A stretch of 20,971 nucleotides of DNA from a virus. A model generated the notes under the pieces. It ran no database searches, was not told where the DNA came from, and saw nothing but the letters and a program-made list of their open reading frames with translations. This document shows, in pieces, positions 34 through 20,971 of the stretch; position 1 is the first letter of the stretch, and each line of letters starts with the position of its first letter. Location of the stretch: positions 1-20,971 of IMG/VR virus record IMGVR_UViG_3300031670_000504. One strand, 5' to 3'. A program made the translations under genes and the position numbers.

Positions 34-127
34 GGAGAGATGGCCGAGCTGGTCGAAGGCGCGCCCCTGCTAAGGGCGTATACGCGCAAAACGCGTATCG
101 TGGGTTCGAATCCCACTCTCTCCGCCA
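34..127 (+). tRNA. tRNA-Ser (anticodon GCU)
   Basis: A full class II tRNA cloverleaf can be read. The acceptor stem GGAGAGA (34-40) pairs with TCTCTCC (117-123), followed by discriminator G124 and an encoded CCA (125-127). The anticodon loop carries GCT at 69-71, which decodes AGC/AGU serine codons. The long variable arm typical of tRNA-Ser is a perfect hairpin (TACGCG/CGCGTA, about 80-96), and the T arm has the usual GGTTCGAATCC. tRNA-Ser genes are common island integration sites, but no second copy of the 3' end was found in this window. Confidence 0.97.
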
Positions 128-4568: not shown

Positions 4569-4995
4569 GGGATACCCTGAGCCCGAAGAACAAGGGACCT
4601 GACCAGCGTGTTCCGGTAATCAGCCGGGCGATTTCCGAGAGGCTTCGATAGGGCTGTCCCCGGTATGCAAAGCCCTCAGTGATCACAGTGACCTCATGGG
4701 TGTCGCCATTCCACTCACGGACTAATCGCGTGCCCAATTTGATGCGCGGAACATCTAAACCTGCACCGGAGCCAGTCTCAATTTCAGTGGCAATCTTGCG
4801 TAGTTGTTTGCGGGTGTTGGCACTGAGCCCACCGTAGGTCTGCTCTTGCAGGCGGTAGGCAATACAACTAATCAGGAAATCTTTGTGGGCTCGGCAGTGC
4901 AGGGGGTGGCCAAATACTTCATTCCACAGAGAAAGTAGTTCCGCGCGTGTCAGTTGAGGTAGGCATTCAAGCTGTTTAGCGATATCGTTGGACAT
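4561..4995 (-). CDS. DUF2924 family protein
   Basis: A 144-residue protein recognised as DUF2924 from its layout: an N-terminal LTRAELLSLWNEVFG helix, a middle helical stretch, then a C-terminal GTRLVREWNGDTHEV strand and a YRSLSEIARLITG segment resembling a small DNA-binding or modulator fold. The family occurs almost always directly upstream of a large serine recombinase, with overlapping genes, as here. Its biochemical role is not established; an accessory or directionality role for the recombinase is an inference from context. It is the first gene of the minus-strand operon and diverges from the plus-strand gene at 5084. Confidence 0.85.
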   Translation of the reverse strand: MSNDIAKQLECLPQLTRAELLSLWNEVFGHPLHCRAHKDFLISCIAYRLQEQTYGGLSANTRKQLRKIATEIETGSGAGLDVPRIKLGTRLVREWNGDTHEVTVITEGFAYRGQPYRSLSEIARLITGTRWSGPLFFGLRVSHG

Positions 4996-5019
4996 GGTCT
5001 GGCATCATTTATCCGGTCC

Positions 5020-5048
5020 ATTCACGCTTGGTATGCGTGTGAAGTCAA
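5020..5048 (-). promoter_or_regulatory. Possible promoter and palindrome for the DUF2924-recombinase operon
   Basis: On the minus strand TTGACT (5043-5048) is followed after 17 bases by GTGAAT (5020-5025), giving a good -35 and a poor -10. Inside the spacer lies an inverted repeat, CACGC (5023-5027) and GCGTG (5035-5039), with a 7-bp centre, a plausible operator. It sits in the 88-bp divergent gap between 4995 and 5084. Confidence 0.3.
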
Positions 5049-5083
5049 CTCGCCATTTTTTACCCAGAAACAGGCCTCTTTAA

Positions 5084-5749
5084 ATGGATAACCAGCAAAA
5101 CTCATTTCCCAAATCCGAACAACTCTTCAACGATACCTGGTGGGCATTCAATAATGCCTCAGAAGTGCTTGGATTTAAAACTGCAATACCCGCAGAACCA
5201 CTGCCATCGGAAACGGACGGTAACCTGTATAGCTTCGAGACACTTCAAAGAAATGCAAATAAAGCAATAAACGCAAAAGAGAAGGTGGATTATCTATTAA
5301 CAAAGTTGCGTAGTAAGAACGCCTTTACAATAAGGGATATGGACGAGTTCGCTAACAGGTTAGGGTTATTTGTTTTACAAGTGCAGTCACTTTCTGGATT
5401 AGTATTTTTCAAGGATAAATTCAAAGCATATGAAACATCTATAAAAAAAGGGCCGCACGCTGAAGCCTACCAGATGAACCACGATATGTTCGCACCAATT
5501 CTTAGAACGCTACTATCGCAACGTCCCAATGGCATCAGCCAGTTGTCTCAGCTCTACGAAATTCCAGAGATGGATAAAAAGGCGGTTGATTATTTTATGG
5601 TCATTCAAGAGAACAAAGAGAACGATCGAAGAGTATGGCTGCGTACTGCCCTGAGGAATGTTGCGATGTATCATCCACAGCGTAAACGGCTAGATAATTC
5701 AGCACGCTTATCAAAAAGACTTCCACATAAAAGACGAAATAAATCATAG
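5084..5749 (+). CDS. Hypothetical protein (221 aa) between recombinase and terminase modules
   Basis: Function not recognised. The protein has an acidic, polar N-terminus, a mainly helical middle (about 50-140) and a strongly basic tail rich in Arg and Lys (about 195-221) that could bind nucleic acid. There is no signal peptide, membrane segment or obvious catalytic motif. It is divergent from the DUF2924 gene and about 90 bases before the ParB-methyltransferase. Its base composition is more AT-rich than the terminase genes that follow, which suggests a separate origin. The ATG start is preceded by only a weak ribosome site (ACAGG). It is likely a real gene because it fills the gap cleanly with no competing frame. 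Confidence 0.6.
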   Translation: MDNQQNSFPKSEQLFNDTWWAFNNASEVLGFKTAIPAEPLPSETDGNLYSFETLQRNANKAINAKEKVDYLLTKLRSKNAFTIRDMDEFANRLGLFVLQVQSLSGLVFFKDKFKAYETSIKKGPHAEAYQMNHDMFAPILRTLLSQRPNGISQLSQLYEIPEMDKKAVDYFMVIQENKENDRRVWLRTALRNVAMYHPQRKRLDNSARLSKRLPHKRRNKS

Positions 5750-5839
5750 ACATATATCGAGTGAGGTAACAGATTCCTCATAGGAATCTATCTTAAAAGC
5801 TGCACAAAATTAGGCATCGCCCAAATGGAGGATGCCTAA

Positions 5840-7210
5840 GTGTCAATATCCAGCACAAAGAATTTTGCAAATGGTCGTTTGCACGGTAAAGGAATCACGA
5901 TTGTCTATCGTCCCATTACCGAACTCGCGCTCAACCCCAATAACCCTCGCATCCACGCCCCAAAGCAGATCCACCAGCTTGCACGCAGCATTGCAACCTT
6001 CGGCTTTACGGTACCAATTCTAGTTTCTAGCCAGGGCCAGGTAATCGCAGGTCATGGCCGGCTACTTGCGGCACAAGAACTCGGAATTATCCACGTACCT
6101 ACAATCTGCCTTGAGCACCTAACTGAACAACAAATCCAAGCATACGTCATTGCGGACAATAAATTAGCTGAGAACGCGATCTGGAACGAAAGGTTACTGG
6201 CCGAACAGTTCAAGGCATTGTCGTCCGTAGAACTCGACTTTAGTCTGGAAGTCACCGGGTTCGATATGGGGGAAATCGATCTTCTGATCGAAAGTCTCAC
6301 GCCGGTGACGGATAGCGATGAAGACCCTGCGGATGCGCTTCCGGATAACCTATCGGAACAGGCGGTTACGCGCCCTGGGGACTTGTGGGTATTGGGTAGT
6401 CACCGTATCCACTGCGGCAGTGCCCTGGAAGCAGCCGCGTATGACGTGCTCATGAACGATAAGCAAGCCAGCATGGTTTTCACGGACCCACCTTACAACG
6501 TGCCCATCGAGGGGCATGCCAGTGGATTGGGTTCCATCCATCACAAGGACTTTGTGATGGCCTGCGGTGAAATGGATCAGGCCACGTTCACCCAGTTCCT
6601 CAAGAACGCCTTCACCCAGCTCGCACATCACAGTATTTCGGGCTCATTGCATTTTGTGTGTATGGATTGGCGGCACATTGGTGAGCTGCATGCGGCCGGT
6701 CACGCGGTATACACCGAGCTTAAGAACCTTTGTATCTGGGTCAAAGACAATGGTGGCATGGGCAGTTTGTACCGCAGCCAGCATGAACTCATCTTTGTAT
6801 TCAAGAACGGTACGGCCGCCCATCAAAATCATGTGCAGCTCGGCCAGTTCGGCCGTTATCGCAGCAATGTCTGGAATTACCCCGGCGTGAATTCTTTCGG
6901 GCGAACCGCGGAGGAGGGCAACCTGCTGGCGTTACATCCCACCGTCAAACCCACAGCCTTGGTGGCCGATGCCATTCTCGATTGTTCAAGCCGCGGCGAC
7001 ATTGTGCTTGATGCTTTTCTCGGCAGTGGTACGACGGTGATGGCCGCCGAGCGCACCGGCCGTATCTGTTATGCCATCGAGATTGATCCTTTGTATGTCG
7101 ATACCGCCATCCGACGCTGGCAATCCTATACAGGGCAAACCGCCGTGCACGGAGAATCCGGCCAATCATTCAAAGGACTTGAGGCCGAACGGAGATGCGC
7201 CCATGGCTAA
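5840..7210 (+). CDS. ParB-like domain fused to beta-class DNA methyltransferase
   Basis: A 456-residue fusion. Residues about 20-115 form a ParB/Srx-type domain with the hallmark GHGR at 71-74. The rest is an amino-methyltransferase in which the catalytic motif IV DPPYNV (216-221) precedes the AdoMet-binding motif I DAFLGSGTT (391-399), the order of beta-class N6-adenine or N4-cytosine enzymes. HPTVKP (366-371), just before motif I, is typical of the family. It would methylate DNA using S-adenosylmethionine. Such fusions are frequent in phages and islands, commonly beside terminase genes. The chosen start is GTG at 5840 because GGAGGA at 5827-5832 lies seven bases before it. The 3' end overlaps the next gene by eight bases, so the block to 9078 is probably one operon. 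Its target sequence cannot be read from the gene. Confidence 0.9.
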   Translation: MSISSTKNFANGRLHGKGITIVYRPITELALNPNNPRIHAPKQIHQLARSIATFGFTVPILVSSQGQVIAGHGRLLAAQELGIIHVPTICLEHLTEQQIQAYVIADNKLAENAIWNERLLAEQFKALSSVELDFSLEVTGFDMGEIDLLIESLTPVTDSDEDPADALPDNLSEQAVTRPGDLWVLGSHRIHCGSALEAAAYDVLMNDKQASMVFTDPPYNVPIEGHASGLGSIHHKDFVMACGEMDQATFTQFLKNAFTQLAHHSISGSLHFVCMDWRHIGELHAAGHAVYTELKNLCIWVKDNGGMGSLYRSQHELIFVFKNGTAAHQNHVQLGQFGRYRSNVWNYPGVNSFGRTAEEGNLLALHPTVKPTALVADAILDCSSRGDIVLDAFLGSGTTVMAAERTGRICYAIEIDPLYVDTAIRRWQSYTGQTAVHGESGQSFKGLEAERRCAHG

Positions 7211-7616
7211 AAAACCCAAGAACCCCAGTGACTATCCTGTGGGCTATGGCAAACCCCCGCAAAAGTCTCGGTTCAAAAAGGGCCAGTCCGGCAATCCTAA
7301 AGGACGGTCTCAAGGTTCACCTAATCTTGCGACAGCGGTTGACCGCGCGCTCAAGGAGAAGGTGGTGGTGAACGAAGGTGGTCAGCGGCGCGTGATCTCG
7401 AAGCTGGAGGCGATGGTGACCAACATGGTGAATAAGGCGGCCGTTGGCGAACCTCGGGCCCGGCAACAACTACTCCAGGTCATTCGTGTCCTCGATGGCG
7501 ATCCTGCCGAGGCCTCGAGTGACGCTGAGCTTGCTCACGAGGATGAAGAAATCATGGCACGTATCGCAGAACGCCTGCGGCGGACCGAACAGGAGAAACC
7601 CAGTGAAAAACCTTAA
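7203..7616 (+). CDS. DUF5681 domain protein
   Basis: A 137-residue protein starting MAKKPKNPSDYPVGYGKPP. The YPVGYGKPP...RFKKGQSGNPKGR block near the N-terminus (about residues 11-36) is the signature of DUF5681. The remainder is helical and ends in a charged tail. The start at 7203 is preferred over in-frame upstream codons because the domain begins there and it gives the short overlap with the methyltransferase typical of this operon. DUF5681 genes regularly precede a terminase large subunit, so a small-terminase or DNA-binding adaptor role is a reasonable guess, but it is unproven. The Lys/Arg/Gly-rich N-terminal block is consistent with DNA contact. Confidence 0.85.
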   Translation: MAKKPKNPSDYPVGYGKPPQKSRFKKGQSGNPKGRSQGSPNLATAVDRALKEKVVVNEGGQRRVISKLEAMVTNMVNKAAVGEPRARQQLLQVIRVLDGDPAEASSDAELAHEDEEIMARIAERLRRTEQEKPSEKP

Positions 7617-9078
7617 TCGACGTGAATATGACGCCGTGCTGCGTCAAGACTTCAATGCCTTTATTGAGAAGTGCTACTACCAGTTGAACCCAACGGGCGT
7701 GTTTCTACCCAACTGGCACCTGGAGGCCATGGCGGCGAAGCTCGAGGACTGCCGCTGGCGCGAGAGCCGGCGGGTCATCCTCACCGTCCCACCCCGGCAC
7801 CTGAAGTCCATCGCGGCCTCGGTTGCGCTCGTGGCCTGGTGGCTTGGACACGACCCCACGGCCCAGATCCTGTGTGCCAGTTATGGCCAGGACCTGGCAG
7901 ACAAGCATGCACTCGACTGTCGGGCCGTGATGCAAAGCCTCTGGTACCAGCGGATTTTTAAGACCCGCCTGTCGGAGGAGAAGCAAGCCGTGCATGACTT
8001 TGAGACTACGGCCAAGGGATTTCGGATGGCGACCTCCATCGGCGGTGTACTCACCGGCCGAGGCGCGGATGTGGTCATCATCGATGACCCCCTCAAGCCC
8101 GATGAGGCGGTCTCCGACGTCCGGCGGCGGGCGGCGAATGAATGGTATGACAATACCTTGTATACCCGACTCAACGACAAGCACACGGGCTGCATCATTA
8201 TCGTCATGCAGCGATTGCACGAAGATGACCTCGTCGGGCATGTACTGGGTCAGGAGTCCTGGGAGGTGGTCGCCTTTCCGGCCATCGCCGAGGTGGATGA
8301 GCGTCATGTGATTGAAACTGCGTTCGGCACCTATACGCATGTGCGCAAGGCTGGAGAAGCCTTACACCCTGAGCGCGAGTCATTGGAGACCCTAAAGAAC
8401 ATCCGCCAAACCCTCGGGGACTACAACTTCGCCGGCCAGTACCAACAAGTTCCTGCACCCCTCGGCGGGGGTATGGTCAAACGCAAGTGGTTGCAGACCT
8501 ACGAGCCTAACCAGCTACCGGAGAAATTTGACCAGATTGTGCAGAGCTGGGATACCGCCAACTCGGTGTCTGAGCTCAGCAATTACAGTGTGTGCACCAC
8601 CTGGGGGATCAAGGCCAAGAACATCTATTTACTGCATGTTCTGCGTAAGCGACTGGAATATCCGGATCTGAAACGGGCTGTGCGTGAGCAAGAGAATTTG
8701 CGTGAAGCCACCGTTGTCCTTATTGAGGACAAAGCATCTGGAACCCAGCTCATTCAGGAATTGAATCAGGAAGGGCCCCATGACATCACCGCCTACAAAC
8801 CGGATGGGGATAAGGTCATGCGCATGCATGCCCAGACGGCCACCATCGAAAATGGCCGCGTGCTCATCCCCAAAGAAGCACCATGGCTGGATGATTACCT
8901 GCATGAGCTCGTCAACTTCCCGAATGGGAAGTATTCAGATCAGGTGGATTCAACTTCCCAGGCTTTGGACTGGATCAAGCAAGACGCGCGCGTGCCAGGA
9001 ATCCTTCAATACTACATCAACGAAAACATCCGCATGGGGCTTGCCTATCCGGATGGCACATTGAAGGATGACTATTGA
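7603..9078 (+). CDS. Phage terminase large subunit
   Basis: A 491-residue packaging motor protein of the phage TerL type. The ATPase half shows a Walker-A-like VPPRHLKSI (62-70), a Walker B VVIIDDP (157-163) and a conserved MQRLHEDD segment (202-209). The C-terminal RNase H-like nuclease half shows D317 (QSWDTA), E375 (LIEDKASG) and an acidic cluster near D446-D449. In tailed phages it cuts concatemeric DNA and pumps it into the prohead. The GTG start at 7603 is chosen because AGGAG sits just upstream and it leaves a 14-base overlap with DUF5681; a longer reading from 7444 would add a non-conserved tail. Length and motifs look intact. No portal, protease or capsid gene follows; downstream is a decayed gene on the opposite strand. 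Confidence 0.92.
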   Translation: MKNLNRREYDAVLRQDFNAFIEKCYYQLNPTGVFLPNWHLEAMAAKLEDCRWRESRRVILTVPPRHLKSIAASVALVAWWLGHDPTAQILCASYGQDLADKHALDCRAVMQSLWYQRIFKTRLSEEKQAVHDFETTAKGFRMATSIGGVLTGRGADVVIIDDPLKPDEAVSDVRRRAANEWYDNTLYTRLNDKHTGCIIIVMQRLHEDDLVGHVLGQESWEVVAFPAIAEVDERHVIETAFGTYTHVRKAGEALHPERESLETLKNIRQTLGDYNFAGQYQQVPAPLGGGMVKRKWLQTYEPNQLPEKFDQIVQSWDTANSVSELSNYSVCTTWGIKAKNIYLLHVLRKRLEYPDLKRAVREQENLREATVVLIEDKASGTQLIQELNQEGPHDITAYKPDGDKVMRMHAQTATIENGRVLIPKEAPWLDDYLHELVNFPNGKYSDQVDSTSQALDWIKQDARVPGILQYYINENIRMGLAYPDGTLKDDY

Positions 9079-9871: not shown

Positions 9872-10021
9872 AGCGTCCGTACCACCGGCATCCCTGCCGG
9901 TTGCACAGCGCGACCCACATTGGCCGAATGGCTTCCAGGCGCACAGTCGCCAAGGCCATTTCTCGAGCGTTCGCCTGAAGCGCGGTCCTACGGACCAAAC
10001 CACGACGGCCTCTGGCTTCCG
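9872..10021. repeat. 150-bp direct repeat, copy 1
   Basis: This 150-bp segment recurs at 10253-10402 with no gaps and three base differences (about 98% identity). It contains a perfect 7-bp hairpin (9884-9890 with 9895-9901, loop TCCC) and a second short palindrome, GGTCC-TAC-GGACC. A long stop-free frame on the minus strand reads through both copies but is compositional. It is most likely a dispersed intergenic repeat of this genome. No terminal inverted repeats or transposase are visible. Confidence 0.85.
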
Positions 10022-10252: not shown

Positions 10253-10402
10253 AGCGTCCGTACCACCGGCATCCCTGCCGGTTGCACAGCGCGACCCACA
10301 TTGGCAGACTGGCTTCCAGGCGCACAGTCGCCAAGGCCATTTCTCGAGCGTTCGCCTGAAGCGCGGTCCTACGGACCAAACCACGACGGCCTCGGGCTTC
10401 CG
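10253..10402. repeat. 150-bp direct repeat, copy 2
   Basis: Second copy of the repeat at 9872-10021. Two of the three differences lie close together (two bases in one 4-base patch near 10306-10309) and the third is near the 3' end. The substitutions are not adenine-specific. The repeat ends 54 bases before the reverse transcriptase start codon, so it would lie in that gene's leader if transcription begins further upstream. Confidence 0.85.
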
Positions 10403-10456: not shown

Positions 10457-11656
10457 TTGACAGCGTTCCAGCACGTCTCTGATATCGATTCACTTAGGCA
10501 AGCCTGGAAAAGCCTCCTAGACCATACACCATCTCGACATCGCGGCACGAGCGGCATTGACGGGGAGTCGGTTCGTCAATTTGCAGACAAAGCCGATCGA
10601 AATCTCCGGCAACTGTCATACTACCTGAGATCTGCCTGTTTTCATTACAATCGGCTCAAGGTCCATTTTGAAGAAAAGCCGACCGGCGGTCTTCGTCCCA
10701 TTTGCGTTCCGACTGTCCGTGATCGAATCGTCCAGCGTGCCGTGCTGGAATACCTTCATAGCCTGCCTAACCGACGATACCGCCTCGAAAATGATATTAG
10801 CTATGGATTTATTAAAGGCCGTACCGTCAGTCAAGCTGTTGAACGTGCGGTAACACTCCGCAATTCCTTCCCATGGGTCTACAAGACAGATATTTCAAAG
10901 TTTTTCGATACGTTGCCGAGACCGGCTTTGAAAGCACAATTGACCAGATTTATCCGGTTACGCAGTATTCATCCACTTCTACTAGATGCTATTGACTGTG
11001 AAATTGAGCCACGCGACACAATTCAAAAAGAAAAGCTCTCTAGAACACATCTAAAAGTCGGCGTCGGCGTCCGGCAAGGAATGCCTCTATCGCCATACTT
11101 CGCAAATCTACTTCTTAGATCATTCGATGCGGATATTCAAAAAAATGGATTCCGAGCCGTTCGCTACGCAGATGACCTTATAATTCTTGCTTCGTCTGAG
11201 CAGGAATGCAGGCACATACACGAATTCTGCAAAACAAGTCTCGATTCTTTAGGTCTAAGTATTCCTGATGTTGGCGACAAGAAAACTCACATTTGGTCGC
11301 CGACGGAGTCCGCTGAGTTCCTTGGTGTCGGATTAGAGCTAGACAGTAAGTCACGCTACGTCGTAAATCTCACAGATCATCAAATGGCGGGTAAGCGGGA
11401 GAGACTACTTGAGTTGGCCGATAATAAAACTATCCACTCACATAATCTAACGTTGTCTGTACTTCTTAGAAAGTTGGATGGTCGAATAGACGGATGGCTT
11501 GGCTGCTATGACTATGTAAACAATTTAGACGCATTCGAACAACGTCTAATGGACTGGCGCAAGCTAGCTTTGGAAAAGCTATTCGCAGAGCAACTTGGGC
11601 TGACGGACTTGACAAAGATTAGGCGGTGCTTCTTGGGGATTGAACCTTATTCCTAA
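10457..11656 (+). CDS. Orphan reverse transcriptase (group II-like / unknown-group type)
   Basis: A 399-residue RNA-directed DNA polymerase. Finger and palm motifs run in order: GGLRPICVPTVRDRIVQRA (78-96), SYGFIKGRTVSQAV (115-128), catalytic D145 in YKTDISKFFD (142-151), GVRQGMPLSPYFANLLL (204-220) and the YADD box (237-240), which gives the other two catalytic Asp. A thumb-like C-terminus follows (DGRIDGWLGCYDY, 341-353). There is no HNH endonuclease or full maturase DNA-binding domain, and no intron domain V was seen downstream. Retron (VTG) and diversity-generating (SQ) signatures are absent. It therefore fits a stand-alone bacterial RT, a class several of whose members protect against phage, but I cannot name the subgroup. 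The only usable start is TTG at 10457; the frame is closed by TGA at 10406. No partner gene is adjacent. Confidence 0.85.
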   Translation: MTAFQHVSDIDSLRQAWKSLLDHTPSRHRGTSGIDGESVRQFADKADRNLRQLSYYLRSACFHYNRLKVHFEEKPTGGLRPICVPTVRDRIVQRAVLEYLHSLPNRRYRLENDISYGFIKGRTVSQAVERAVTLRNSFPWVYKTDISKFFDTLPRPALKAQLTRFIRLRSIHPLLLDAIDCEIEPRDTIQKEKLSRTHLKVGVGVRQGMPLSPYFANLLLRSFDADIQKNGFRAVRYADDLIILASSEQECRHIHEFCKTSLDSLGLSIPDVGDKKTHIWSPTESAEFLGVGLELDSKSRYVVNLTDHQMAGKRERLLELADNKTIHSHNLTLSVLLRKLDGRIDGWLGCYDYVNNLDAFEQRLMDWRKLALEKLFAEQLGLTDLTKIRRCFLGIEPYS

Positions 11657-12183: not shown

Positions 12184-12210
12184 TTCACCGATGTGGTGAA
12201 ATTCGGTGAA
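12184..12210 (+). promoter_or_regulatory. Operator-like half-site array at the RHH gene
   Basis: TTCACC at 12184-12189 is followed by its complement GGTGAA at 12195-12200 and again at 12205-12210. Starts are 11 and 10 bp apart, about one helical turn, the spacing at which ribbon-helix-helix dimers usually stack on DNA. The array covers the proposed GTG start of the RHH gene, suggesting autoregulation of the RHH-methyltransferase operon. Confidence 0.5.
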
Positions 12211-12439
12211 GGTTGATAGCACGGCTAAAATGAAGGCAAAAAGAAAAGGGGCTGGAAAGAAGAGGATGCAGGCTCACAGCACGGCACAGGTGCGCGTAAC
12301 AGTCAGTTTTCCACCGAAGGTTTATGAGACTCTTGAAAACATTGGCAAGGAGAAAAAGGTGTCGTTCGCGTGGGTCGTCCGAGAAGCTGCCGAAAAGTAC
12401 ATCGGAGACAAGTGGCCGCTTTTCAAAGAGCCGGAGTAG
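12206..12439 (+). CDS. Ribbon-helix-helix (CopG-like) regulator
   Basis: A small protein of up to 77 residues. The core QVRVTVSFPPKVYETLENIG gives the RHH beta strand and first helix, and VSFAWVVREAAEKYI the second helix. A Lys/Arg-rich N-terminal arm precedes it. RHH proteins dimerise and insert the strand pair into the major groove, usually to repress their own operon. The start is uncertain: GTG 12206 lies inside the half-site array, while in-frame ATG codons at 12230 and 12266 (the latter just behind GGAAAGAAGAGG) would still give a complete domain. It lies 73 bases before methyltransferase A and probably controls the modification arm of the cassette. Confidence 0.7.
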   Translation: MKVDSTAKMKAKRKGAGKKRMQAHSTAQVRVTVSFPPKVYETLENIGKEKKVSFAWVVREAAEKYIGDKWPLFKEPE

Positions 12440-12512
12440 CGCGATGCAGTCCGTAGGGCAGGGAATAAATATCGATCAACATAGAAGCAACACAGAAAAG
12501 AGCAGGTAAAAA

Positions 12513-13448
12513 ATGGCAACGCGCTTGACAGCGCCGCGGCGGCAGAAGAAGAACACGATTTTGAAGGTAGAGGATGCATTGCCGATCGAGGTGGCCGCCC
12601 TGGAAAATGGGAAGGTAGATGCACGGAACCAACTTAATGATTTAACCGCGAAAGAGTGGATCGTCGAAACTGTCTCCGTGTGGAACCAGCGTGGCTTAGG
12701 TGCTGGTCATGCGGATGCGCAAATCGAGCGCCAGCATCCAGCCCCATTTTCTTTTACGGACGTGGGTCGCTTGGTCCGGTTTTTTACCAAACGCGGCGGT
12801 GTGGTGCTCGATCCGTTTGTTGGTGTCGGGTCCACGCTTAAAGCATGTGCTATTGACGGTCGCAACGGGATTGGGATTGAGCTGAACCCACGTTTTTCCG
12901 AGCTGACGCGGGAACGATTGAGCACGGAAGTCAGCGATATGTTCGCAAACGTAGGCGAGCAGAAAATTCTAGAGGGTGACGCGCGCAAGCTTCTGCCGAA
13001 GCTTGCTGATGAGAGCGTTGATCTCGTTGTGACCAGTCCGCCCTACTGGGGCATCCTCAGGAAGGAGGATCACAAGGCTCGCCAAGAACGTATCGCGAAC
13101 GGGTTATCTACAAATTACGGCGATGATCACCGGGACTTAGGTAACATCAAGGACTACGACGAGTTTCTCCGTGAACTGACCGGCATCTTCGACCAATGCC
13201 GCCGAGTGTTGAAGCCGGGGAAATATATGACCATCATCATCAGCGATTTTCGAGAAAAATCGCGCTACGTGATGTTTCATGCGGACCTGGCGCGATCTCT
13301 TGAGAACATTGGGCTCGAAGTCCGTGGCCTCAAGGTACTCTACCAGCGTCACAAGAAAATCTTTCCCTATGGTTATCCCTATTCCTATGTTCCTAACATC
13401 CACAATCAGTACATTTTGATAGTACAGAAGCCGAAGGCGAACAAATGA
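12513..13448 (+). CDS. DNA methyltransferase A (amino-methyltransferase, motif I before IV)
   Basis: A 311-residue AdoMet-dependent DNA methyltransferase. HPAPF (75-79) and motif I LDPFVGVGST (99-108) come first, then the acidic GIELNP motif (121-126), GDAR (155-158) and the catalytic motif IV TSPPYW (174-179). SPPY is most common in N4-cytosine enzymes, though N6-adenine cannot be excluded. The region after motif IV is short, so target recognition must lie in about 180-290. The stop codon overlaps the ATG of the next methyltransferase in ATGA, indicating coupled translation. Together with enzyme B it would protect host DNA from the nuclease encoded opposite. Two different methyltransferases in one system usually means an asymmetric recognition site, with one enzyme per strand. 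Confidence 0.88.
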   Translation: MATRLTAPRRQKKNTILKVEDALPIEVAALENGKVDARNQLNDLTAKEWIVETVSVWNQRGLGAGHADAQIERQHPAPFSFTDVGRLVRFFTKRGGVVLDPFVGVGSTLKACAIDGRNGIGIELNPRFSELTRERLSTEVSDMFANVGEQKILEGDARKLLPKLADESVDLVVTSPPYWGILRKEDHKARQERIANGLSTNYGDDHRDLGNIKDYDEFLRELTGIFDQCRRVLKPGKYMTIIISDFREKSRYVMFHADLARSLENIGLEVRGLKVLYQRHKKIFPYGYPYSYVPNIHNQYILIVQKPKANK

Positions 13449-14239
13449 GACAGGAACTTGTACACGGCGACTGCATCGCCGAGATGAAGGACTTGGCGGA
13501 TAGCAGCTTTAACCTGATCGTTGCCGATCCGCCTTACAACCTGAATAAGGATTTCGGCCCTTGGAAGGAAGCCGAACGACGTTCCGAGTGGAAGGATTGG
13601 ACGCGAGAGTGGCTCAGCCAGGCCCAGCGGGTCCTCTCAGATCAGGGAAACATTTTCGTCTATGGCATCCATCACCATCAGTGCTGGGTGCAGTGCATGA
13701 TGTTGGAGCTGGGGCTTATCTATCGGCGGCAAATAATCTGGTATTACGAGAATGGTTTTGCCGGGTATGGGAAGCGCTCTCTGAATGCGTGCTACGAGCC
13801 GCTTCTTTGGTTCTCGAAAACCGACAATTATATTTATGACACAATCCGCGAGCCTTACATGAGTCAGGAGCGGCTGAAACACAAGATCATCAAGAACGGC
13901 AAGGTGTGGACGCCGCACCCTGACGGCCGAATGGCCGGCGACGTGTGGGCGTTTCCGACCTTAGCCGGTCGTCGTTTCCGCGATGAGAAGGTCGATCATC
14001 CGACGCAAAAACCGTTGTCGATATCGAGGCGAATTGTCCGGCATTTCTCGAACCCCGGCGACACGGTTCTTGTGCCATTTGTCGGAAGTGGAACTGAGTG
14101 CGTCGCGGCTGCGGCGGAGGGCAGAGGATATTTCGGATGCGAGCTCAATCCCACCTATCTGAAACTAGCCAAACAGCGCCTCTCCGCTTTGCAGGAGCAG
14201 AAAGAGGCTGCGGAACAGGAAGAAGCCGTTCTTATTTAG
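13445..14239 (+). CDS. DNA methyltransferase B (beta-class, DPPYNL)
   Basis: A 264-residue methyltransferase of the opposite motif order to its partner: GDC (8-10), catalytic DPPYNL (28-33), HPTQKP (185-190), then motif I LVPFVGSGT (209-217) near the C-terminus. DPPY with this order points to an N6-adenine beta-class enzyme. One oddity is that the Asp normally preceding PFxGSGT is Val210 here, which may affect cofactor binding or simply be tolerated. It begins in the ATGA overlap with methyltransferase A and ends with an 8-base tail-to-tail overlap with the ferredoxin-domain gene, so the two arms of the cassette are locked together. The last 20 residues are Glu/Gln-rich. Confidence 0.9.
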   Translation: MRQELVHGDCIAEMKDLADSSFNLIVADPPYNLNKDFGPWKEAERRSEWKDWTREWLSQAQRVLSDQGNIFVYGIHHHQCWVQCMMLELGLIYRRQIIWYYENGFAGYGKRSLNACYEPLLWFSKTDNYIYDTIREPYMSQERLKHKIIKNGKVWTPHPDGRMAGDVWAFPTLAGRRFRDEKVDHPTQKPLSISRRIVRHFSNPGDTVLVPFVGSGTECVAAAAEGRGYFGCELNPTYLKLAKQRLSALQEQKEAAEQEEAVLI

Positions 14240-15281
14240 AAGGTCGGTAAGCCCCGGCGTAGGGTTGGTCTGCGGAGATTAACTTGGAGATGAATTTCGT
14301 CATGGCAGGCCAGAGGTCCGTATCCCCCGGCGAGGTCATGAAGAGATCACCTGCAAACCCGTCTATCGTTTGGAATTGCCACAACACCACCAACAGCGAG
14401 CCGATCGTCAAGGTGCGGCACTGGAGGCCGAGAACTTTTTCAATGTCGGCGATCACTTGGAAATACTCAGAGCGGGCGTTGGGCAAGCCGAGGATGACGC
14501 TCACAGGGTCGATTTGATTTATCTCTATGCCGTAGCGGCCATGCAACACGGCAACATCCTCCAAAAGGGCGCGCGGCGAATCCAATACAGCGTTGCCGAG
14601 TTCGATCTCAAGTACGCCTAGCCGACCGTCGGCCATGCTAAGGACACCATCCATCCTGACATTGGTGTCGCCTCTGCGGCGCGTGCGGCATTCGATGCCG
14701 CACGCGATCAGCAAATTGCGAACAAACTGTGTGCTCGCAAGGTCGCCAAGTGCGGCGACCGACTCCGGCATTTCCCAGAGCGCCGGAGAACCAACGGTTC
14801 CGAGCTGGCCTACGCGCTGCGGGTTCGCATGTTCGGTAGGGTTCGAGCCATTATCACAAGTTGCTGTCAAACGGTCGGGATCGGAAGTTTCGACGATGGC
14901 TTTGCCTTCAGCACTTAGAGAGATCGCACCATATGGGCACCGCGCGACACACAGTCCGCACCCGATACATGTATCGGCATCGGCGAGGATAGTATTCGCA
15001 CCCTCGTTCCAGGACAGCGCGCGCGTCGGGCAGACTTCTTTGGTAGGATCGCCAGGAAAATCCCTGAGGGCCTTCGGGAGCGCGGTGTCGCCTGCGGTTA
15101 GTGTCATGCAAGGCGCATCTTTGCACCCGAGGCATGTGCCCCGGCCTTCGCGTCCATCGGACAGCCTGACCTTGACCGCATGTCCACCTTTCCCGAAGTT
15201 CAGGCGTTCGGCAGGCGCGAGATAGTCGCGGACTCTCCCCTCTCGCCCTATTCTCTTTTTGTGAGGAACTACCTCAGACAT
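14232..15281 (-). CDS. 2[4Fe-4S] ferredoxin domain fused to a nuclease-like domain
   Basis: A 349-residue cytoplasmic protein. The N-terminal half holds a ferredoxin domain with two cluster motifs: C50-x2-C53-x4-C58 with C84-P, and the classic C105-x2-C108-x2-C111-x3-C115-P. The C-terminal half (about 180-310) has no Cys motif. It shows a helix, then RMDGVLS (D211), a turn and LGVLEIELGN (E225, E227), followed by further helix and strand. This looks like the core of a PD-(D/E)XK fold, but with E-x-E in place of E-x-K. The start ATG at 15281 is chosen because it overlaps the end of the endonuclease gene by eight bases. It is the third gene of the operon with the HTH and endonuclease genes. It may be the second subunit of a restriction enzyme, a redox-sensing partner or an unrelated electron carrier; the first is my preferred inference. 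Confidence 0.7.
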   Translation of the reverse strand: MSEVVPHKKRIGREGRVRDYLAPAERLNFGKGGHAVKVRLSDGREGRGTCLGCKDAPCMTLTAGDTALPKALRDFPGDPTKEVCPTRALSWNEGANTILADADTCIGCGLCVARCPYGAISLSAEGKAIVETSDPDRLTATCDNGSNPTEHANPQRVGQLGTVGSPALWEMPESVAALGDLASTQFVRNLLIACGIECRTRRRGDTNVRMDGVLSMADGRLGVLEIELGNAVLDSPRALLEDVAVLHGRYGIEINQIDPVSVILGLPNARSEYFQVIADIEKVLGLQCRTLTIGSLLVVLWQFQTIDGFAGDLFMTSPGDTDLWPAMTKFISKLISADQPYAGAYRPSK

Positions 15282-16986
15282 GGAGAAACCCCCGCAGGCC
15301 GCTAAGCTGCGCACCCTCGATGGTCAGATCATCCGTCGCGGCGCGAATTGCCAGCAGGGCGAGCGTGCCAAGGTCAATCACCCCGATCCTGATCCGGAAA
15401 GATCCGTAGATGTCGTCTATAAGCGAGGACATGTCCCCGCGTTCATTGGGCACCTGATAGCCCACGATCAAACTCGTAATCTCAAAACTGGTTTTCAAAC
15501 CGCCGCGGGCCAGGAGGACAATCTTGTTTTCGAGAGCCTGACGGATTGCCTTCGTTGAGAGAAAAGCTTCCTCAGTGGGGGATTTAATCTCGATGGGGAC
15601 GGCAACCGCGCCCAGCCAGACACAGGCATCCCATCGCTGGTAATTCACGCCAGGCCGGGAATAGTCACTCTGCAAGCCGAGTGCCCGAAACAGCTCGCTC
15701 ACCAGCGGGTAAAACTCCGTCCGGGTGTCGGCCGCGCGCGAGGTGGCAAAGGCCGCTGCTGCTTCTTTATCCGATTGGTGGTGCTGGCGCAGCGTACGCA
15801 ATTCCTCTTCGAGCGAGCGTGTGTTGCTTGCCTCTTTCCTATGCGTTTGTCGCACGAACTTCGGTTCGACAAACAAATGGTCGCGCGCCCCCCGACCGAC
15901 CACCGTGCCCACCACTGCCGCTTCGCGCTCGCGCGCCTTGGTGGAGGCTTCTTCAGAAGCAGGGAAGATCTGGCGAATGTCGGCGATGGATAGTGACTGA
16001 AAGGGAGAAAACAGGAGGGACCGAGTCTGCTCAATACCCAGAAGACCGAGCGCACGATTGAATACCGGCGTTTGGAGTGCCAGCTTCCGACTTACAGGCT
16101 CAAGATCGAAGCCCGCCCGCTCCAGCATATTGTAGTGCGCTTGAACGCTGAGCGCGGCTTTCTCTTGAAACGGAAGAGCATCCACTTGGTCAACCCGGAT
16201 ATCGGCCGACGTCAGTATGCGGCGCGCGACCGTCTTACCCTGCTCGGTCAGTCGGTGTGCTTCAAAGGTGCCGGCTTTACGGAATTTCAGACGAACTTTC
16301 TCCGTCCATCCGCAATCGCGCATGATCGCAATGGGCCAACGTGTGTAATTCTTGAGCGTGTTGATCTGGATGTGCCTTTCTTCGGAAAGGCGCTCGATGG
16401 CGTCTTGAATAGTTTTTGGATTTAGCCGTAAGCCTTCCACGAATGTCGCCATAACGGCCGCCGCCCCAGGCTGGCGATCGGAACGGGCACTCAGCGGCCC
16501 CACGATCATTTCATCCCTGGACAGCGCATCACCGCACGCCAGCATGGTCTGCAGGATGAAGGCGAGCGGCCGAAGATCGTGCTCGCCTTGAACGGTCAAC
16601 ACATGGCTCGGGTACGAAATCCCGAGCACGGTCTCTCCGAACAGAGGCAGATAGTATGGTCCGGCGGCAACCAGCTGCCGACCGAGCAATGTGAAGGTGT
16701 AGTTTAGTGCGCTACGTTCGGTCGGATGCAGCCAGCCGAGCGACCGGAAAAGTTCAGCATACATCTTGAGCTGGTTATATAGAGGATCGCGGGTGCGGTC
16801 GAGTCTCGTGGAACGCGCGATGGCTTCCGCACCCATATACCCGGAGGACGTGGCCATATTGGCGTCAACCGTCGCTCCGACGATATCATCGAGAGTGACC
16901 ACCTGGCCATGAAGCCGCTCGAAAGCCGCAGTATAGACTGCTACGAAATTGCTGATTGTCGAACCGGGGTTGGGAAAGCGGAGCAT
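15274..16986 (-). CDS. Candidate restriction endonuclease with C-terminal PD-(D/E)XK site
   Basis: A 570-residue protein. Residues 1-340 are helical with segments that look like winged-helix units (for example around 60-105 and 185-255), suited to DNA recognition. A charged linker follows (about 345-420). The C-terminal domain has E424 in a helix, then D453 (QRWDACVW) and E466-x-K468 (VPIEIKSP), the D-x12-E-x-K catalytic pattern of PD-(D/E)XK nucleases. Recognition at the N-terminus, linker and C-terminal cleavage domain, at about 600 residues, is the plan of N.BspD6I-like type IIS large subunits. No sequence match to that family can be claimed by eye. ATG 16986 is chosen over an in-frame codon at 17037 because it lies four bases behind the HTH stop and next to an AGGGGAAA ribosome site. 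The two methyltransferases opposite would protect its target. Confidence 0.65.
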   Translation of the reverse strand: MLRFPNPGSTISNFVAVYTAAFERLHGQVVTLDDIVGATVDANMATSSGYMGAEAIARSTRLDRTRDPLYNQLKMYAELFRSLGWLHPTERSALNYTFTLLGRQLVAAGPYYLPLFGETVLGISYPSHVLTVQGEHDLRPLAFILQTMLACGDALSRDEMIVGPLSARSDRQPGAAAVMATFVEGLRLNPKTIQDAIERLSEERHIQINTLKNYTRWPIAIMRDCGWTEKVRLKFRKAGTFEAHRLTEQGKTVARRILTSADIRVDQVDALPFQEKAALSVQAHYNMLERAGFDLEPVSRKLALQTPVFNRALGLLGIEQTRSLLFSPFQSLSIADIRQIFPASEEASTKAREREAAVVGTVVGRGARDHLFVEPKFVRQTHRKEASNTRSLEEELRTLRQHHQSDKEAAAAFATSRAADTRTEFYPLVSELFRALGLQSDYSRPGVNYQRWDACVWLGAVAVPIEIKSPTEEAFLSTKAIRQALENKIVLLARGGLKTSFEITSLIVGYQVPNERGDMSSLIDDIYGSFRIRIGVIDLGTLALLAIRAATDDLTIEGAQLSGLRGFLHV

Positions 16987-16990
16987 TACG

Positions 16991-17230
16991 TCATTTCCCC
17001 TTGCGTTCGATCTTCCGGAGCACCCCACATGGGTCAAGTTTCAGCACCTTGCACAATTCCATAAACTCGACGACGTCCAGCCGTCTTTCACCGCGTTCGT
17101 ACTTCGACACGAACGACTGCGGCTTCTTCAGCAACCTGGCCAGTTCCCGCTGGCTTGGCCTCAAGCGAACGCGGGCCTCCGTCATCAGTGACAGAAAGCG
17201 CCCATAGGGCTCACTGTGGATCGACTTCAA
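16991..17230 (-). CDS. XRE-type HTH regulator, probable controller protein
   Basis: A 79-residue helix-turn-helix protein. The core (PSQRELARLLKKPQSFVSKY followed by ERGERRLDVVEF) is a typical XRE/Cro-type fold filling almost the whole chain, as in controller (C) proteins of restriction-modification systems. TTG at 17230 is the preferred start: GGGAGAG lies just upstream and the family normally begins a few residues before the IHSEPYGRFL stretch. A longer in-frame reading to 17263 adds a non-conserved hydrophobic lead. It is the first gene of the operon with the endonuclease and ferredoxin-domain genes, four bases ahead of the endonuclease. An operator-like inverted repeat overlaps its promoter. 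It probably delays or limits nuclease expression until the host DNA is methylated. Confidence 0.8.
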   Translation of the reverse strand: MKSIHSEPYGRFLSLMTEARVRLRPSQRELARLLKKPQSFVSKYERGERRLDVVEFMELCKVLKLDPCGVLRKIERKGK

Positions 17231-17269
17231 AACACACTCTCCCAAAATAACAGCCACCGCCAATGTTCT

Positions 17270-17310
17270 GTATAAACCTGTTTTGGATTTGAACCCAACA
17301 CGCGTTCAAA
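17270..17310 (-). promoter_or_regulatory. Promoter with operator-like inverted repeat for the HTH-endonuclease operon
   Basis: On the minus strand TTGGGT (17293-17298) and TTATAC (17270-17275) are separated by 17 bases, a plausible sigma-70 promoter about 40 bases before the TTG start. A perfect 7-bp inverted repeat TTTGAAC/GTTCAAA (17288-17294 and 17304-17310, 9-bp spacer) overlaps the -35 box. This is where a self-repressing controller protein would bind. Confidence 0.5.
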
Positions 17311-18380: not shown

Positions 18381-19367
18381 TTAATTCGTCACTGCCAAGA
18401 AATGTTCTTTTATCAATATCTGTTCGCCATCCCATCGATAAGCCACCAGTGCACCACCGCGCGCAATGCTGTAATCAAGACAGGCCACGTTTGTTGAGAG
18501 TGGGGCGGGTGTACCGCTCAGCCAGTAATGGCCTACAAAGACTGGCGGCGCATTTGTCGGATATTGCAGGAAATCTTGAGCAATTATCCTGCGTTTACTG
18601 AGTTGACGAATGAGAGAAGGTGGACCTAATAAGGCATCTTGCCAGTGATATGACTTACGATCCTCAAGCCACCATTTAATACGCGCCTTGGTTCAAACTT
18701 TGCCATCGGTATCCTTGAACTGGATTCCGACTGGTAATGAACGTTCGATGCCTTTCAGAACAAATTCGGCCGCCTCGAAGAGGAGTGTGCCGTGTTGAAA
18801 GAGCGGCAACGCTCGTTGTGTGTTTAAAAGTAGGAGGGTAGTGCCAATCTGCTCTTTGATAAGTGCCATTGCACACTCATCCCAGACAGCATGGACCACG
18901 CGTAATTCGCCTAAATCGAGCCAGAGCGGCAAGCTTTGGAACCAGCTCAAGGTATCGAGGTAATCACGTTCGTTACCCTTGAACTCCTCAATAAATGGCT
19001 GATGTTGCTCAAAGGTATGTCCCAATCGATCACGTAGGCGCCGGCCGAGTATTTTTGGGTGTGGCAGTCCAAACCCCAAGGCGTTGAATTCATGGTTGCC
19101 CATGACCGCTAAAGCGGAGCCCTGTTCGACCATTGGGCGGACAATCGCAATAACTCCACGTCCTGGATGCCGGTCAATGAAATCCCCTAGGAAGATGGCC
19201 TTGCGGCTCGGGTGACGCAGGACGCCCTCTTTATTGCGATAGCCAAGACGTTTCAGCAGGGCCCGCAAAGCAGTCTCGCAGCCATGAATATCGCCAATCA
19301 GGTCATAACCATCGATGCCGTGAGCCGTTTGGAGTGATTTTTGTGTCATGGCATAAGTCGATCGCAT
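18381..19367 (-). pseudogene. Calcineurin-like metallophosphoesterase gene with an in-frame stop
   Basis: The first 224 codons carry the phosphoesterase motifs GDIHG (25-29), GDFIDR (61-66) and GNHE (90-93), which hold two metal ions for phosphate ester hydrolysis. The frame stops at TGA 18693-18695 after DTDGKV. The same frame then continues for 103 codons to TAA at 18381 and encodes what looks like the normal end: KARIKWW, the conserved FVGHYWLSG motif and ACLDYSIARGGALVAYRWDG. A single C-to-T change (CGA to TGA, Arg) explains the break. The GHYW histidine ligand lies behind the stop, so the shorter product should be inactive. Either ATG 19367 or 19349 could be the start. It lies 106 bases behind the AAA ATPase gene and probably shared its operon. 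Confidence 0.8.
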
Positions 19368-19473: not shown

Positions 19474-20971
19474 TCATGAAAGGAATCCAATCGTCCGGTG
19501 TTGACCCCCAGGCTTGTGCACACATTCCTCAGCAAGCGCATCCAGGAAGGTGCTGGCAGATAGCTTTTTGACGAGCCGCAATCTACGCAAAGCCGCTGCG
19601 AAATCGCCAGGCGTGAGCTGATCAAGTGCCTCCAGTCGCCGGGCCTCAGGCTGAGAAGCATCGAGCTCAGTCTGCGCTTGATCTCGCAAAATCTGATTGC
19701 AGAGTGCAAACCGCTGTGCACGTGTCAGGGGACGGAATTCGATCTTGAAATCAAAGCGCCGGAAGACTGCTTGATCGAGATCATGTAACAGATTAGTGGA
19801 CGCGATGAAGATGCCTTCAAAATGTTCCATGCCGGTAAGGAATTCGTTCACCTGGGTCACTTCCCAGCTGCGCACGGCGTTGGTGCGGTCGCGCAGGAAG
19901 CTGTCGGCTTCATCGAGCAGCAGCACCGCGCCATCCTGCCCGGCTTCCTGGAACATCTGGGCGGTGAGCTTCTCGGTCTGGCCCAGATACATGTTGAGAA
20001 GATCCGAAGCGCGCCGCACCATCAGTGGCTTATCCAGTTGTTCCGCCAGATATTTAGCAAAGGCGGTCTTGCCGGTCCCAGGAGGCCCGTAGAGGCATAT
20101 GCGGCCCGAGGGTGTCGTGCGCAGGCCCTGAAGCACAGCCCCAAGATCGAAGCTGGGATTCACATAGTCCAGCCGGTAGGTGATGGGATCGTTGGAGGCT
20201 AGGAATGGCGGCAACGGATTGCCGCAGACTTCTGACAAATGCGACAGGGTGCGAGTGATAGCCATCTCCGCTGCTTTCCCCGGCGACACCTGCATGAGGC
20301 CTGCGGCGCGCACAGCGGTTTCGATATGCGCAGGCTTGATTTGGGTTTCATCGGCCAGCCGGTCAATCCATCTCTCAGAGACTGCTAATGGTTGCACTTT
20401 GTTTTCGATTAGGCGGCGGCGTGCTTTCCGGCTTGGCGTTTCGAGCTGTAGGATATAGGTGAACCGGCGCAGGAACGCCTCATCGATCTGTTCTATTTGA
20501 TTACTGATCCAGATCGCCGGCACCGGATTGCTCTCGAGCAGCTGGTTAGTCCAGGCTTTCTGTTGCCCAACGGGCCTGGACTGGCTCCAAAACGGGGATA
20601 GGGAAAATCGGGATGGAAACGCATCTTCGATCTCATCAAAGAGCAATACACAGGGCAGGCGGCGTTTCAGTACCTGCTGGCTGATTTTGAAGACCGACAG
20701 GCGCTTCTCTCCAGGCCGTGGGTCCCCGTCTTCATCGATCGTGCTGACTTCATAAAGAGGCACACTTGCTTCAGAGGCAAGCAAGCGTGCAAGTTCGGTT
20801 TTGCCTGTACCAGGCGTGCCATAGAGCAGGATATTGACTCCGCGTGTCTGGTTCTTGCAGGTATTGGCTAGCAGGGGCCGCAACAAGGCGATGTCTTCTG
20901 CAACGTGGGAGTAATCCTCAACCGTCAGGTTGGTCGGTTCGGCGATTTTGAAAAATGCACTCAAGAGCTCA
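19474..20971 (-). CDS. Tandem AAA ATPase, 5' end outside the window
   Basis: At least 496 residues with two complete AAA modules. In the first, Walker A GTPGTGKT (49-56) and Walker B LLFDE (107-111) are followed by a sensor-like WISN and a LRRF Arg finger. In the second, Walker A is GPPGTGKT (293-300), Walker B LLLDEAD (348-354), sensor 1 IASTN (387-391) and Arg finger FRRFD (401-405). Both sites look active, so this is a hexameric-type remodelling ATPase of the Cdc48/ClpB style in architecture, but the substrate is unknown. The frame is open to the window edge; a TTG at 20964 might be used, but a start beyond the window is more likely. It precedes the broken metallophosphoesterase gene on the same strand. 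Confidence 0.88.
   Translation of the reverse strand, partial: ELLSAFFKIAEPTNLTVEDYSHVAEDIALLRPLLANTCKNQTRGVNILLYGTPGTGKTELARLLASEASVPLYEVSTIDEDGDPRPGEKRLSVFKISQQVLKRRLPCVLLFDEIEDAFPSRFSLSPFWSQSRPVGQQKAWTNQLLESNPVPAIWISNQIEQIDEAFLRRFTYILQLETPSRKARRRLIENKVQPLAVSERWIDRLADETQIKPAHIETAVRAAGLMQVSPGKAAEMAITRTLSHLSEVCGNPLPPFLASNDPITYRLDYVNPSFDLGAVLQGLRTTPSGRICLYGPPGTGKTAFAKYLAEQLDKPLMVRRASDLLNMYLGQTEKLTAQMFQEAGQDGAVLLLDEADSFLRDRTNAVRSWEVTQVNEFLTGMEHFEGIFIASTNLLHDLDQAVFRRFDFKIEFRPLTRAQRFALCNQILRDQAQTELDASQPEARRLEALDQLTPGDFAAALRRLRLVKKLSASTFLDALAEECVHKPGGQHRTIGFLS

What the first reader, a model, noticed from the sequence alone, without database searches (positions are those of the whole stretch)
12184..17310. 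Convergent RM-like cassette with two methyltransferases, a PD-(D/E)XK nuclease and a ferredoxin-domain partner
Seen: RHH, MTase A and MTase B on plus; HTH, D-x12-E-x-K protein and ferredoxin-domain protein on minus; all coupled by overlaps or gaps of a few bases, with the two arms overlapping tail to tail. Known: asymmetric-site type IIS systems such as BspD6I, BtsI and BsrDI use two methyltransferases plus a large and a small nuclease subunit. Inference: this is a heterodimeric type IIS-like system whose small subunit has gained a 2[4Fe-4S] domain. I know of no described example. The Fe-S part could make restriction depend on redox state or help DNA binding.
Basis: partly seen in the sequence, partly recalled or inferred. 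Interest (0 to 1): 0.87.

Follow-up and report, generated by a model that had tools for sequence, protein, structure and literature searches.

The report
Restriction enzyme with iron-sulfur cutting subunit
A mobile DNA-defence cassette pairs two DNA methylases with a two-subunit cutting enzyme resembling BspD6I, and its small cutting subunit carries a predicted iron-sulfur domain found in no restriction enzyme we could trace, which raises the testable idea that DNA cutting is tied to iron-sulfur or redox state.

Summary
The cassette is real and conserved. Window 12206-17263 holds RHH, methyltransferase A and methyltransferase B on plus, converging on HTH, a 570-aa nuclease (Nuc) and a 349-aa ferredoxin-domain protein (Fd) on minus. 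Nuc's predicted structure has significant PDB matches only to the BspD6I large subunit (E 1.7e-9) and FokI. Fd is more than a partner. Its C-terminal half is a second nuclease-like domain, homologous to Nuc's (hhalign E 1.2e-12), with invariant D211, E225 and E227. It looks like the small, second-strand subunit of a type IIS/IIT heterodimer, fused to an eight-cysteine ferredoxin domain.

Relatives occur in Alphaproteobacteria, Chloroflexi, Desulfoprunum, Spartobacteria and prophages. Nuc, Fd and both methylases recur together, and all eight cysteines are invariant in 13 distinct Fe-S subunits. Three relatives have a 214-215-aa small subunit without the Fe-S domain, a natural control. Several relatives have an R-M control-protein gene upstream, and one prophage carries the cassette exactly where close relatives carry another methylase cassette.

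Cleavage activity, cluster binding, redox role, and gain versus loss of the domain are not shown. I rate it a new variant of a known kind.

The parts
12206..12439 (+). RHH (CopG-like) small regulator gene upstream of the methyltransferases; 73-bp gap to MTase A; start codon uncertain
   Evidence: RHH_1 E 3.5e-4, 20.9 bits against a cut-off of 20.5; an RHH-type ORF lies at the same place in L001 and L003, and a MerR-like HTH in L004
12513..13448 (+). Methyltransferase A (311 aa), TSPPY motif after the DPFVGVGST motif; probably N4-cytosine (or N6-adenine) methylation of one strand
   Evidence: N6_N4_Mtase 5.5e-28; 66-74% identical in four relatives; base specificity is inferred from the motif only
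13445..14239 (+). Methyltransferase B (264 aa), DPPY motif, beta-class N6-adenine type; closest solved structure M.MboIIA
   Evidence: N6_N4_Mtase 2.4e-50; PDB 1g60 E 1.8e-42; 71-74% identical in relatives
14232..15281 (-). Fd: Fe-S small subunit (349 aa), N-terminal ferredoxin domain plus C-terminal PD-(D/E)XK-like nuclease domain
   Evidence: Fer4_7/Fer4 above cut-off; alignments; hhalign to Nuc E 1.5e-5, or 1.2e-12 with the wider family
14892..15155 (-). Ferredoxin region of Fd (residues about 43-130): C50-x2-C53-x4-C58-x25-C84-P and C105-x2-C108-x2-C111-x3-C115-P, two predicted [4Fe-4S] sites
   Evidence: All eight Cys invariant in 13 distinct Fe-S-bearing homologues (plus L002)
14373..14744 (-). 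Nuclease-like domain of Fd (residues about 180-303), D211 / E225-I-E227
   Evidence: Predicted order H-E-E-E-H-E-H-E, pLDDT mostly 60-78; Foldseek best hits EndoMS (3e-3) and EcoT38I; D/E/E invariant also in Fe-S-less relatives
15274..16986 (-). Nuc: large subunit (570 aa), BspD6I/FokI-like; N-terminal recognition region and C-terminal nuclease domain
   Evidence: AlphaFold2 pLDDT 79; Foldseek to N.BspD6I 1.7e-9 and FokI 3.8e-8, the only PDB matches at E <= 1e-3
15340..15708 (-). Catalytic domain of Nuc (residues 427-549); D453 (15628-15630), E466 (15589-15591), K468 (15583-15585)
   Evidence: Invariant in all Nuc homologues aligned
16991..17263 (-). XRE-type HTH gene, 4 bp upstream of Nuc; place of the R-M control (C) protein
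   Evidence: HTH_3 2.2e-8; PADLOC Control_protein 1.7e-4 here, and 8e-24 to 1e-18 for the gene at the same place in L001, L004, L006 and L008

Best explanation
It is a complete mobile type II restriction-modification system of the heterodimeric type IIS/IIT kind. The two methyltransferases each protect one strand of an asymmetric site. Nuc is the large, BspD6I-like subunit: it recognises the unmodified site and cuts one strand with its C-terminal D-E-x-K site. Fd is the small subunit: its C-terminal D-E-x-E nuclease domain, a paralogue of Nuc's, cuts the other strand when docked on Nuc. Its N-terminal 2[4Fe-4S]-type ferredoxin domain is an added module, most likely needed for folding, docking or DNA contact, and possibly a redox or iron-sulfur-status gate on double-strand cleavage. 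The upstream HTH gene acts as a control protein. Shown: gene content, conservation, co-occurrence, homology of the two nuclease domains, fold match to BspD6I, invariant cysteines. Inferred: cleavage, strand assignment, cluster binding, the role of the cluster.
For: Fold match of Nuc to BspD6I/FokI only. Fd and Nuc catalytic domains homologous. Eight invariant Cys and an invariant D/E/E. Relatives with a bare 214-215-aa small subunit beside the same Nuc, MTase A and MTase B. Co-occurrence in every informative locus. Distance matrices of the four proteins correlate (Mantel r 0.77-0.94, p <= 4e-4). Control-protein gene upstream of Nuc in relatives. Exchange with another MTase-plus-partner pair at the same prophage site. 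Literature: type IIT enzymes of the BspD6I/BtsI/BsrDI kind have a large subunit that recognises and cuts one strand, a small subunit that cuts the other, and two MTases (PMC4081073; PMC2909958).
Against: Nuc does not match BspD6I by sequence profile, only by fold, with low global TM-score (about 0.33). The Fd model is poor in the ferredoxin region (pLDDT about 30) and its fold hits are weak. Fd has E-x-E, not E-x-K. No recognition site, methylation or cleavage data exist. Relatives are few.
Confidence: 0.85

Rival explanations
1. The Fe-S domain is a redox or iron-sulfur-status switch: with the clusters intact (or in one redox state) the heterodimer cuts both strands; when they are oxidised or lost only Nuc acts and the system nicks or stays silent.
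For: A full two-motif ferredoxin arrangement with all eight Cys kept, rather than one structural cluster; relatives that lack it keep the same gene set, so it presumably adds something to the basic reaction.
Against: No redox partner gene in the cassette; no measurement; invariant Cys are equally expected for a structural cluster. Relatives occur in both aerobic hosts (roseobacters) and an anaerobe (Desulfoprunum), judged from the host names.
Confidence: 0.25
2. Fd is a pseudo-nuclease or specificity/assembly factor: only Nuc cuts (as a nickase, or as a Nuc dimer), and Fd's nuclease-like domain is a dimerisation scaffold.
For: E-x-E in place of E-x-K in Fd.
Against: D211, E225 and E227 are invariant over sequences down to about 28% identity, including Fe-S-less relatives; BamHI is an active enzyme with an E-x-E site (own knowledge, not tested).
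Confidence: 0.15
3. Not a restriction system: two orphan-type methylases and a redox/nuclease pair that happen to be neighbours, or a DNA repair or replication function of a prophage.
For: The window is a virus record with a terminase; several relatives lie in prophage contigs.
Against: The same four genes sit next to each other in several phyla and on plasmid-like contigs; R-M control-protein gene upstream; the slot is exchanged for another MTase-plus-partner pair in related prophages; BspD6I/FokI fold.
Confidence: 0.05

Closest known systems
R.BspD6I / BstNBI (large 604 aa nickase plus 186 aa small subunit)
   Same: Large subunit of similar size and predicted fold; small subunit gene directly downstream and carrying a catalytic domain
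   Different: No detectable sequence-profile match; the small subunit here is 349 aa with an N-terminal ferredoxin domain; recognition site unknown
BtsI and BsrDI type IIS/IIT systems
   Same: Two REase subunits (large: recognition plus catalysis; small: catalysis) and two MTases, one for each strand
   Different: No ferredoxin domain is mentioned for these enzymes in the papers read; no sequence comparison could be made, as REBASE was not available
Fe-S-less relatives L053, L054, L066 (this study)
   Same: Orthologous Nuc (27-31% identical) and small-subunit nuclease domain with the same D/E-x-E; MTases A and B in L053 and L054
   Different: Small subunit 214-215 aa without the ferredoxin domain; genes co-directional instead of convergent
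Fe-S nucleases AddB, Cas4, Dna2
   Same: PD-(D/E)XK-type nuclease together with [4Fe-4S]
   Different: There four Cys staple one cluster into the nuclease domain itself (own knowledge); here eight Cys form a separate N-terminal ferredoxin domain
M1/M2.MboII-type methyltransferase pairs
   Same: MTase B's closest solved structure is M.MboIIA; an m6A-type and an m4C-type enzyme would serve an asymmetric site
   Different: Pairing and base specificity are inferred only

Membership tests
Type II restriction-modification system | Cognate DNA MTase(s) genetically linked to a restriction nuclease | tested here: met
   MTase A, MTase B, Nuc and Fd linked in all informative loci
Type II restriction-modification system | Site-specific cleavage blocked by the cognate methylation | not testable with these tools
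   Needs the enzyme or a host strain
Type II restriction-modification system | Control (C) protein gene upstream of the nuclease (frequent, not obligatory) | tested here: met
   E 8e-24 to 1e-18 in L001, L004, L006, L008; only 1.7e-4 in the window's own HTH
Type IIT/IIS heterodimer (BspD6I, BtsI, BsrDI kind) | Large subunit with recognition and catalytic regions of BspD6I/FokI fold | tested here: met
   Foldseek 1.7e-9 / 3.8e-8, no other PDB match at E <= 1e-3
Type IIT/IIS heterodimer (BspD6I, BtsI, BsrDI kind) | Small subunit with its own catalytic domain | tested here: met
   hhalign E 1.2e-12 to the Nuc catalytic domain; D/E/E invariant; catalysis itself not shown
Type IIT/IIS heterodimer (BspD6I, BtsI, BsrDI kind) | Two MTases, one per strand of an asymmetric site | tested here: inconclusive
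   Two different MTases present and conserved; target strands unknown
Type IIT/IIS heterodimer (BspD6I, BtsI, BsrDI kind) | Large subunit alone nicks; both together cut both strands of or near an asymmetric site | not testable with these tools
   Biochemistry needed
BspD6I sequence family | Sequence-profile match to BspD6I | tested here: not met
   hmmsearch with A2 and A8 against PDB sequences gave no BspD6I hit; similarity is of fold only
2[4Fe-4S] ferredoxin domain | Two four-Cys motifs and a Pfam match above cut-off | tested here: met
   Fer4_7 32.7 bits (cut-off 27), Fer4 31.6 (21.1); eight invariant Cys; the first motif has an atypical x4 and x25 spacing
2[4Fe-4S] ferredoxin domain | Binds two [4Fe-4S] clusters | not testable with these tools
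   Needs spectroscopy
AddB/Cas4/Dna2-type Fe-S nuclease | Cluster built into the nuclease domain by four Cys flanking it | tested here: not met
   All eight Cys lie in residues 50-115, before the nuclease-like domain at about 180-303

The most novel reading that the evidence does not exclude
The first redox- or iron-sulfur-gated restriction enzyme: the state of the ferredoxin clusters in the small subunit decides whether invading DNA is cut on both strands, only nicked, or left alone, so that defence strength follows the cell's oxygen, iron or infection-stress status.
Probability: 0.22. Interest if true: 0.92.

Novelty: new variant of a known kind. Interest (0 to 1): 0.74.

Why it matters
Type II restriction enzymes are regarded as simple Mg2+-dependent hydrolases. 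A two-cluster ferredoxin domain fixed in the small subunit of a heterodimeric one, across several phyla, has no described counterpart that I could find. The Fe-S-less relatives make the question 'what does an iron-sulfur cluster do for a nuclease?' directly testable by comparison. If it gates cleavage, it links metabolism to defence and gives a switchable nickase/double-strand cutter. The Nuc family also lacks any Pfam, NCBIfam or PADLOC model, so current defence finders do not label it as the restriction subunit.

Tried and rejected
Sequence-level link of Nuc to any solved structure: none. Known defence-family label for Nuc or Fd: none; the BrxP hit of Fd (E 0.02) is only the ferredoxin motif. 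Plasmid and phage collections: no relative of Nuc, Fe-S or Fe-S-less type, and none of Fd in plasmids. The nearest plasmid MTase A relatives (38.8% identity or less) sit beside a helicase, hypothetical proteins, a phospholipase D family protein or unrelated genes, not beside this nuclease pair. L011 and L012 match Fd only over the ferredoxin motif and were set aside. The idea that Fd is just an electron-transfer partner was dropped once its C-terminal half proved homologous to Nuc's nuclease domain. The 'gain' of the Fe-S domain could not be polarised: the MTase A tree joins the Fe-S-less L053 and L054 with Fe-S-bearing G991, while the Nuc tree, rooted at the midpoint only, separates them, with long branches. 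Recalled BamHI and MboII facts were used as leads only.
Full report
What is there. The window's cassette runs from 12206 to 17263. On plus: an RHH gene, methyltransferase A (MA, 311 aa) and methyltransferase B (MB, 264 aa). On minus, read towards them: an XRE-type HTH gene, a 570-aa nuclease (Nuc) and a 349-aa ferredoxin-domain protein (Fd). The ends are tightly coupled: MA/MB overlap 4 bp, MB/Fd overlap 8 bp tail to tail, Fd/Nuc overlap 8 bp, HTH-Nuc gap 4 bp; only the RHH-MA gap is larger (73 bp). Both MTases are N6_N4_Mtase proteins; Fd scores above the Pfam cut-off for 4Fe-4S dicluster domains; Nuc has no hit in Pfam, NCBIfam or PADLOC.

Conservation. One scan of 84,980 species genomes with Nuc found six relatives: three Rhodobacterales, one Chloroflexi, Desulfoprunum and a Spartobacteria MAG. 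In loci long enough to show it (L001, L003, L004; L005 holds the end of Nuc plus the other three), Nuc is followed by Fd and converges on MB and MA exactly as in the window. The tail-to-tail 8-bp overlap of Fd and MB recurs in L001, L003 and L005. In all nine records holding Nuc at that stage, a full or contig-broken Fd was found. Viral-contig scans seeded separately on Nuc, Fd, MA, MB and the small-subunit nuclease domain return overlapping sets; all nine small-subunit hits have Nuc beside them. The system is rare and scattered: apart from the query genome itself, samples of 397, 297, 350, 385 and 289 genomes gave one more complete Nuc (G991) and one Nuc fragment. Protein distances of the four genes are strongly correlated (Mantel r 0.77-0.94, p <= 4e-4), as for genes that travel together. 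Between the close relatives L001 and L002 dN/dS is 0.07 (Nuc) and 0.23 (Fd, few changes).

Nuc. D453-x12-E466-x-K468 and the surrounding GVNYxRWDA...PIEIKSPxEE are invariant or nearly so in the close family, and D453, E466, K468 are invariant also in relatives at 27-38% identity. AlphaFold2 with eight sequences gives pLDDT 79. Against 350,542 PDB chains, all 11 matches with E <= 1e-3 are N.BspD6I (best 1.7e-9) or FokI (3.8e-8). Global TM-scores are low, so this is a domain-level resemblance, and sequence profiles find no BspD6I match.

Fd is itself nuclease-like. Residues about 180-303 are predicted as the alpha-beta-beta-beta-alpha-beta-alpha-beta core of PD-(D/E)XK nucleases; the best, weak, fold hits are EndoMS and EcoT38I. 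Profile comparison aligns this domain with Nuc's catalytic domain, active site on active site, at E 1.5e-5 and, with the wider family, 1.2e-12. D211, E225 and E227 are invariant in all 15 sequences that cover them. The third residue is E, not K; BamHI is an active precedent (own knowledge). The ferredoxin region has C50-x2-C53-x4-C58-x25-C84-P and C105-x2-C108-x2-C111-x3-C115-P; all eight Cys are invariant in every Fe-S-bearing homologue. The model of this region is unreliable (pLDDT about 30), so the cluster sites rest on motif and Pfam.

Natural controls. Divergent systems L052, L037/L038 and L075 keep the Fe-S subunit and the convergent order; G991 (Chloroflexota) keeps the Fe-S subunit but in a co-directional MA-MB-Nuc-Fd order, with Fd broken by a contig end. 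L053, L054 and L066 have an orthologous Nuc and a bare 214-215-aa small subunit with the same D...E-x-E but no ferredoxin domain; L053 and L054 have MA and MB in front, co-directional. So the ferredoxin domain is a separable module on a BspD6I-style small subunit. Whether it was gained by one lineage or lost by the other is open: the MA tree joins L053/L054 with G991 (99/99), the Nuc tree does not.

Signs of an R-M system. In L001, L004, L006 and L008 the HTH gene before Nuc is a control protein (PADLOC E 8e-24 to 1e-18; the window's own HTH only 1.7e-4). MB is closest to M.MboIIA among solved structures. In prophage contig L008 the cassette lies between portal-like and terminase-like genes (named here from sequence reading, not from a family search); L055 and L056 share that backbone at about 79-90% identity but carry a different MTase plus a 366-aa partner in the same slot. 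L039 has an MA/MB pair with an unrelated 459-aa protein in the nuclease place, with a very weak REase_II hit (0.038).

Mechanism. Literature: type IIT enzymes of the BsrDI/BtsI/BspD6I kind have a large subunit that recognises the site and cuts one strand, a small subunit that cuts the other, and usually two MTases (PMC4081073; PMC2909958); the BspD6I small subunit acts only with a catalytically active large subunit (PMC6261011). By homology, Nuc is the large and Fd the small subunit. Because Fe-S-less relatives manage the same gene set without the domain, it should modify the basic reaction: folding, docking or DNA contact (my first choice, about half), a redox or Fe-S-status gate (about a quarter), or something else.

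Novelty. Full-text searches of 5.39 million open papers and two long R-M reviews showed no Fe-S type II restriction enzyme. REBASE and subscription journals could not be searched. I rate this a new variant of a known kind: the heterodimeric restriction system is known, the ferredoxin-bearing subunit is not.

Noticed in passing
window 9872-10021 and 10253-10402, with ORF 10457-11656 (+): Two 150-bp direct repeats, 98% identical, just upstream of a reverse transcriptase ORF (RVT_1 2.7e-29; PADLOC RT_UG17 5.8e-36; group II RT model below cut-off); no Rfam intron hit. Could be a defence-type or group-II-like RT with a repeat-containing partner RNA.
   Followed up: partly
L008 3723-9094 versus L055 4632-7086: Same prophage backbone (79-89% identical flanks; L056 88-90%) with two different MTase-containing cassettes swapped between the portal-like and terminase-like genes: a defence-exchange site.
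   Followed up: partly
L039 5920-8937: MTase A/B pair 60-63% identical to the window's, facing an unrelated 459-aa protein with a very weak type II REase hit (0.038): the MTase pair seems to be served by another nuclease.
   Followed up: no
window 34-127 and 2844-9078: tRNA-Ser at the edge, large serine recombinase (2844-4568), DUF2924, ParB-methyltransferase fusion (5840-7210), DUF5681 and terminase large subunit (7444-9078): looks like an integrated or decayed phage region.
   Followed up: partly
window 18693-19367 and 19474-20964: Calcineurin-like phosphoesterase beside a protein with two AAA ATPase domains, both on minus.
   Followed up: no
L054, L075 (MTase A genes); L004 12507-12743: MTase A of the divergent AT-rich systems has an N-terminal MerR/excisionase-like HTH fused to it; in L004 a separate MerR-like HTH ORF takes the RHH place: different regulators at the same position.
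   Followed up: no
G002 contig C23 (L002, L021, L022): The Loktanella contig of 18,113 bp has the two halves of Fd at its two ends, so it is probably a circular element, like the 17.8-kb Phaeobacter contig (L001) with a ParA-like gene; both carry a resolvase-like gene before the cassette.
   Followed up: no
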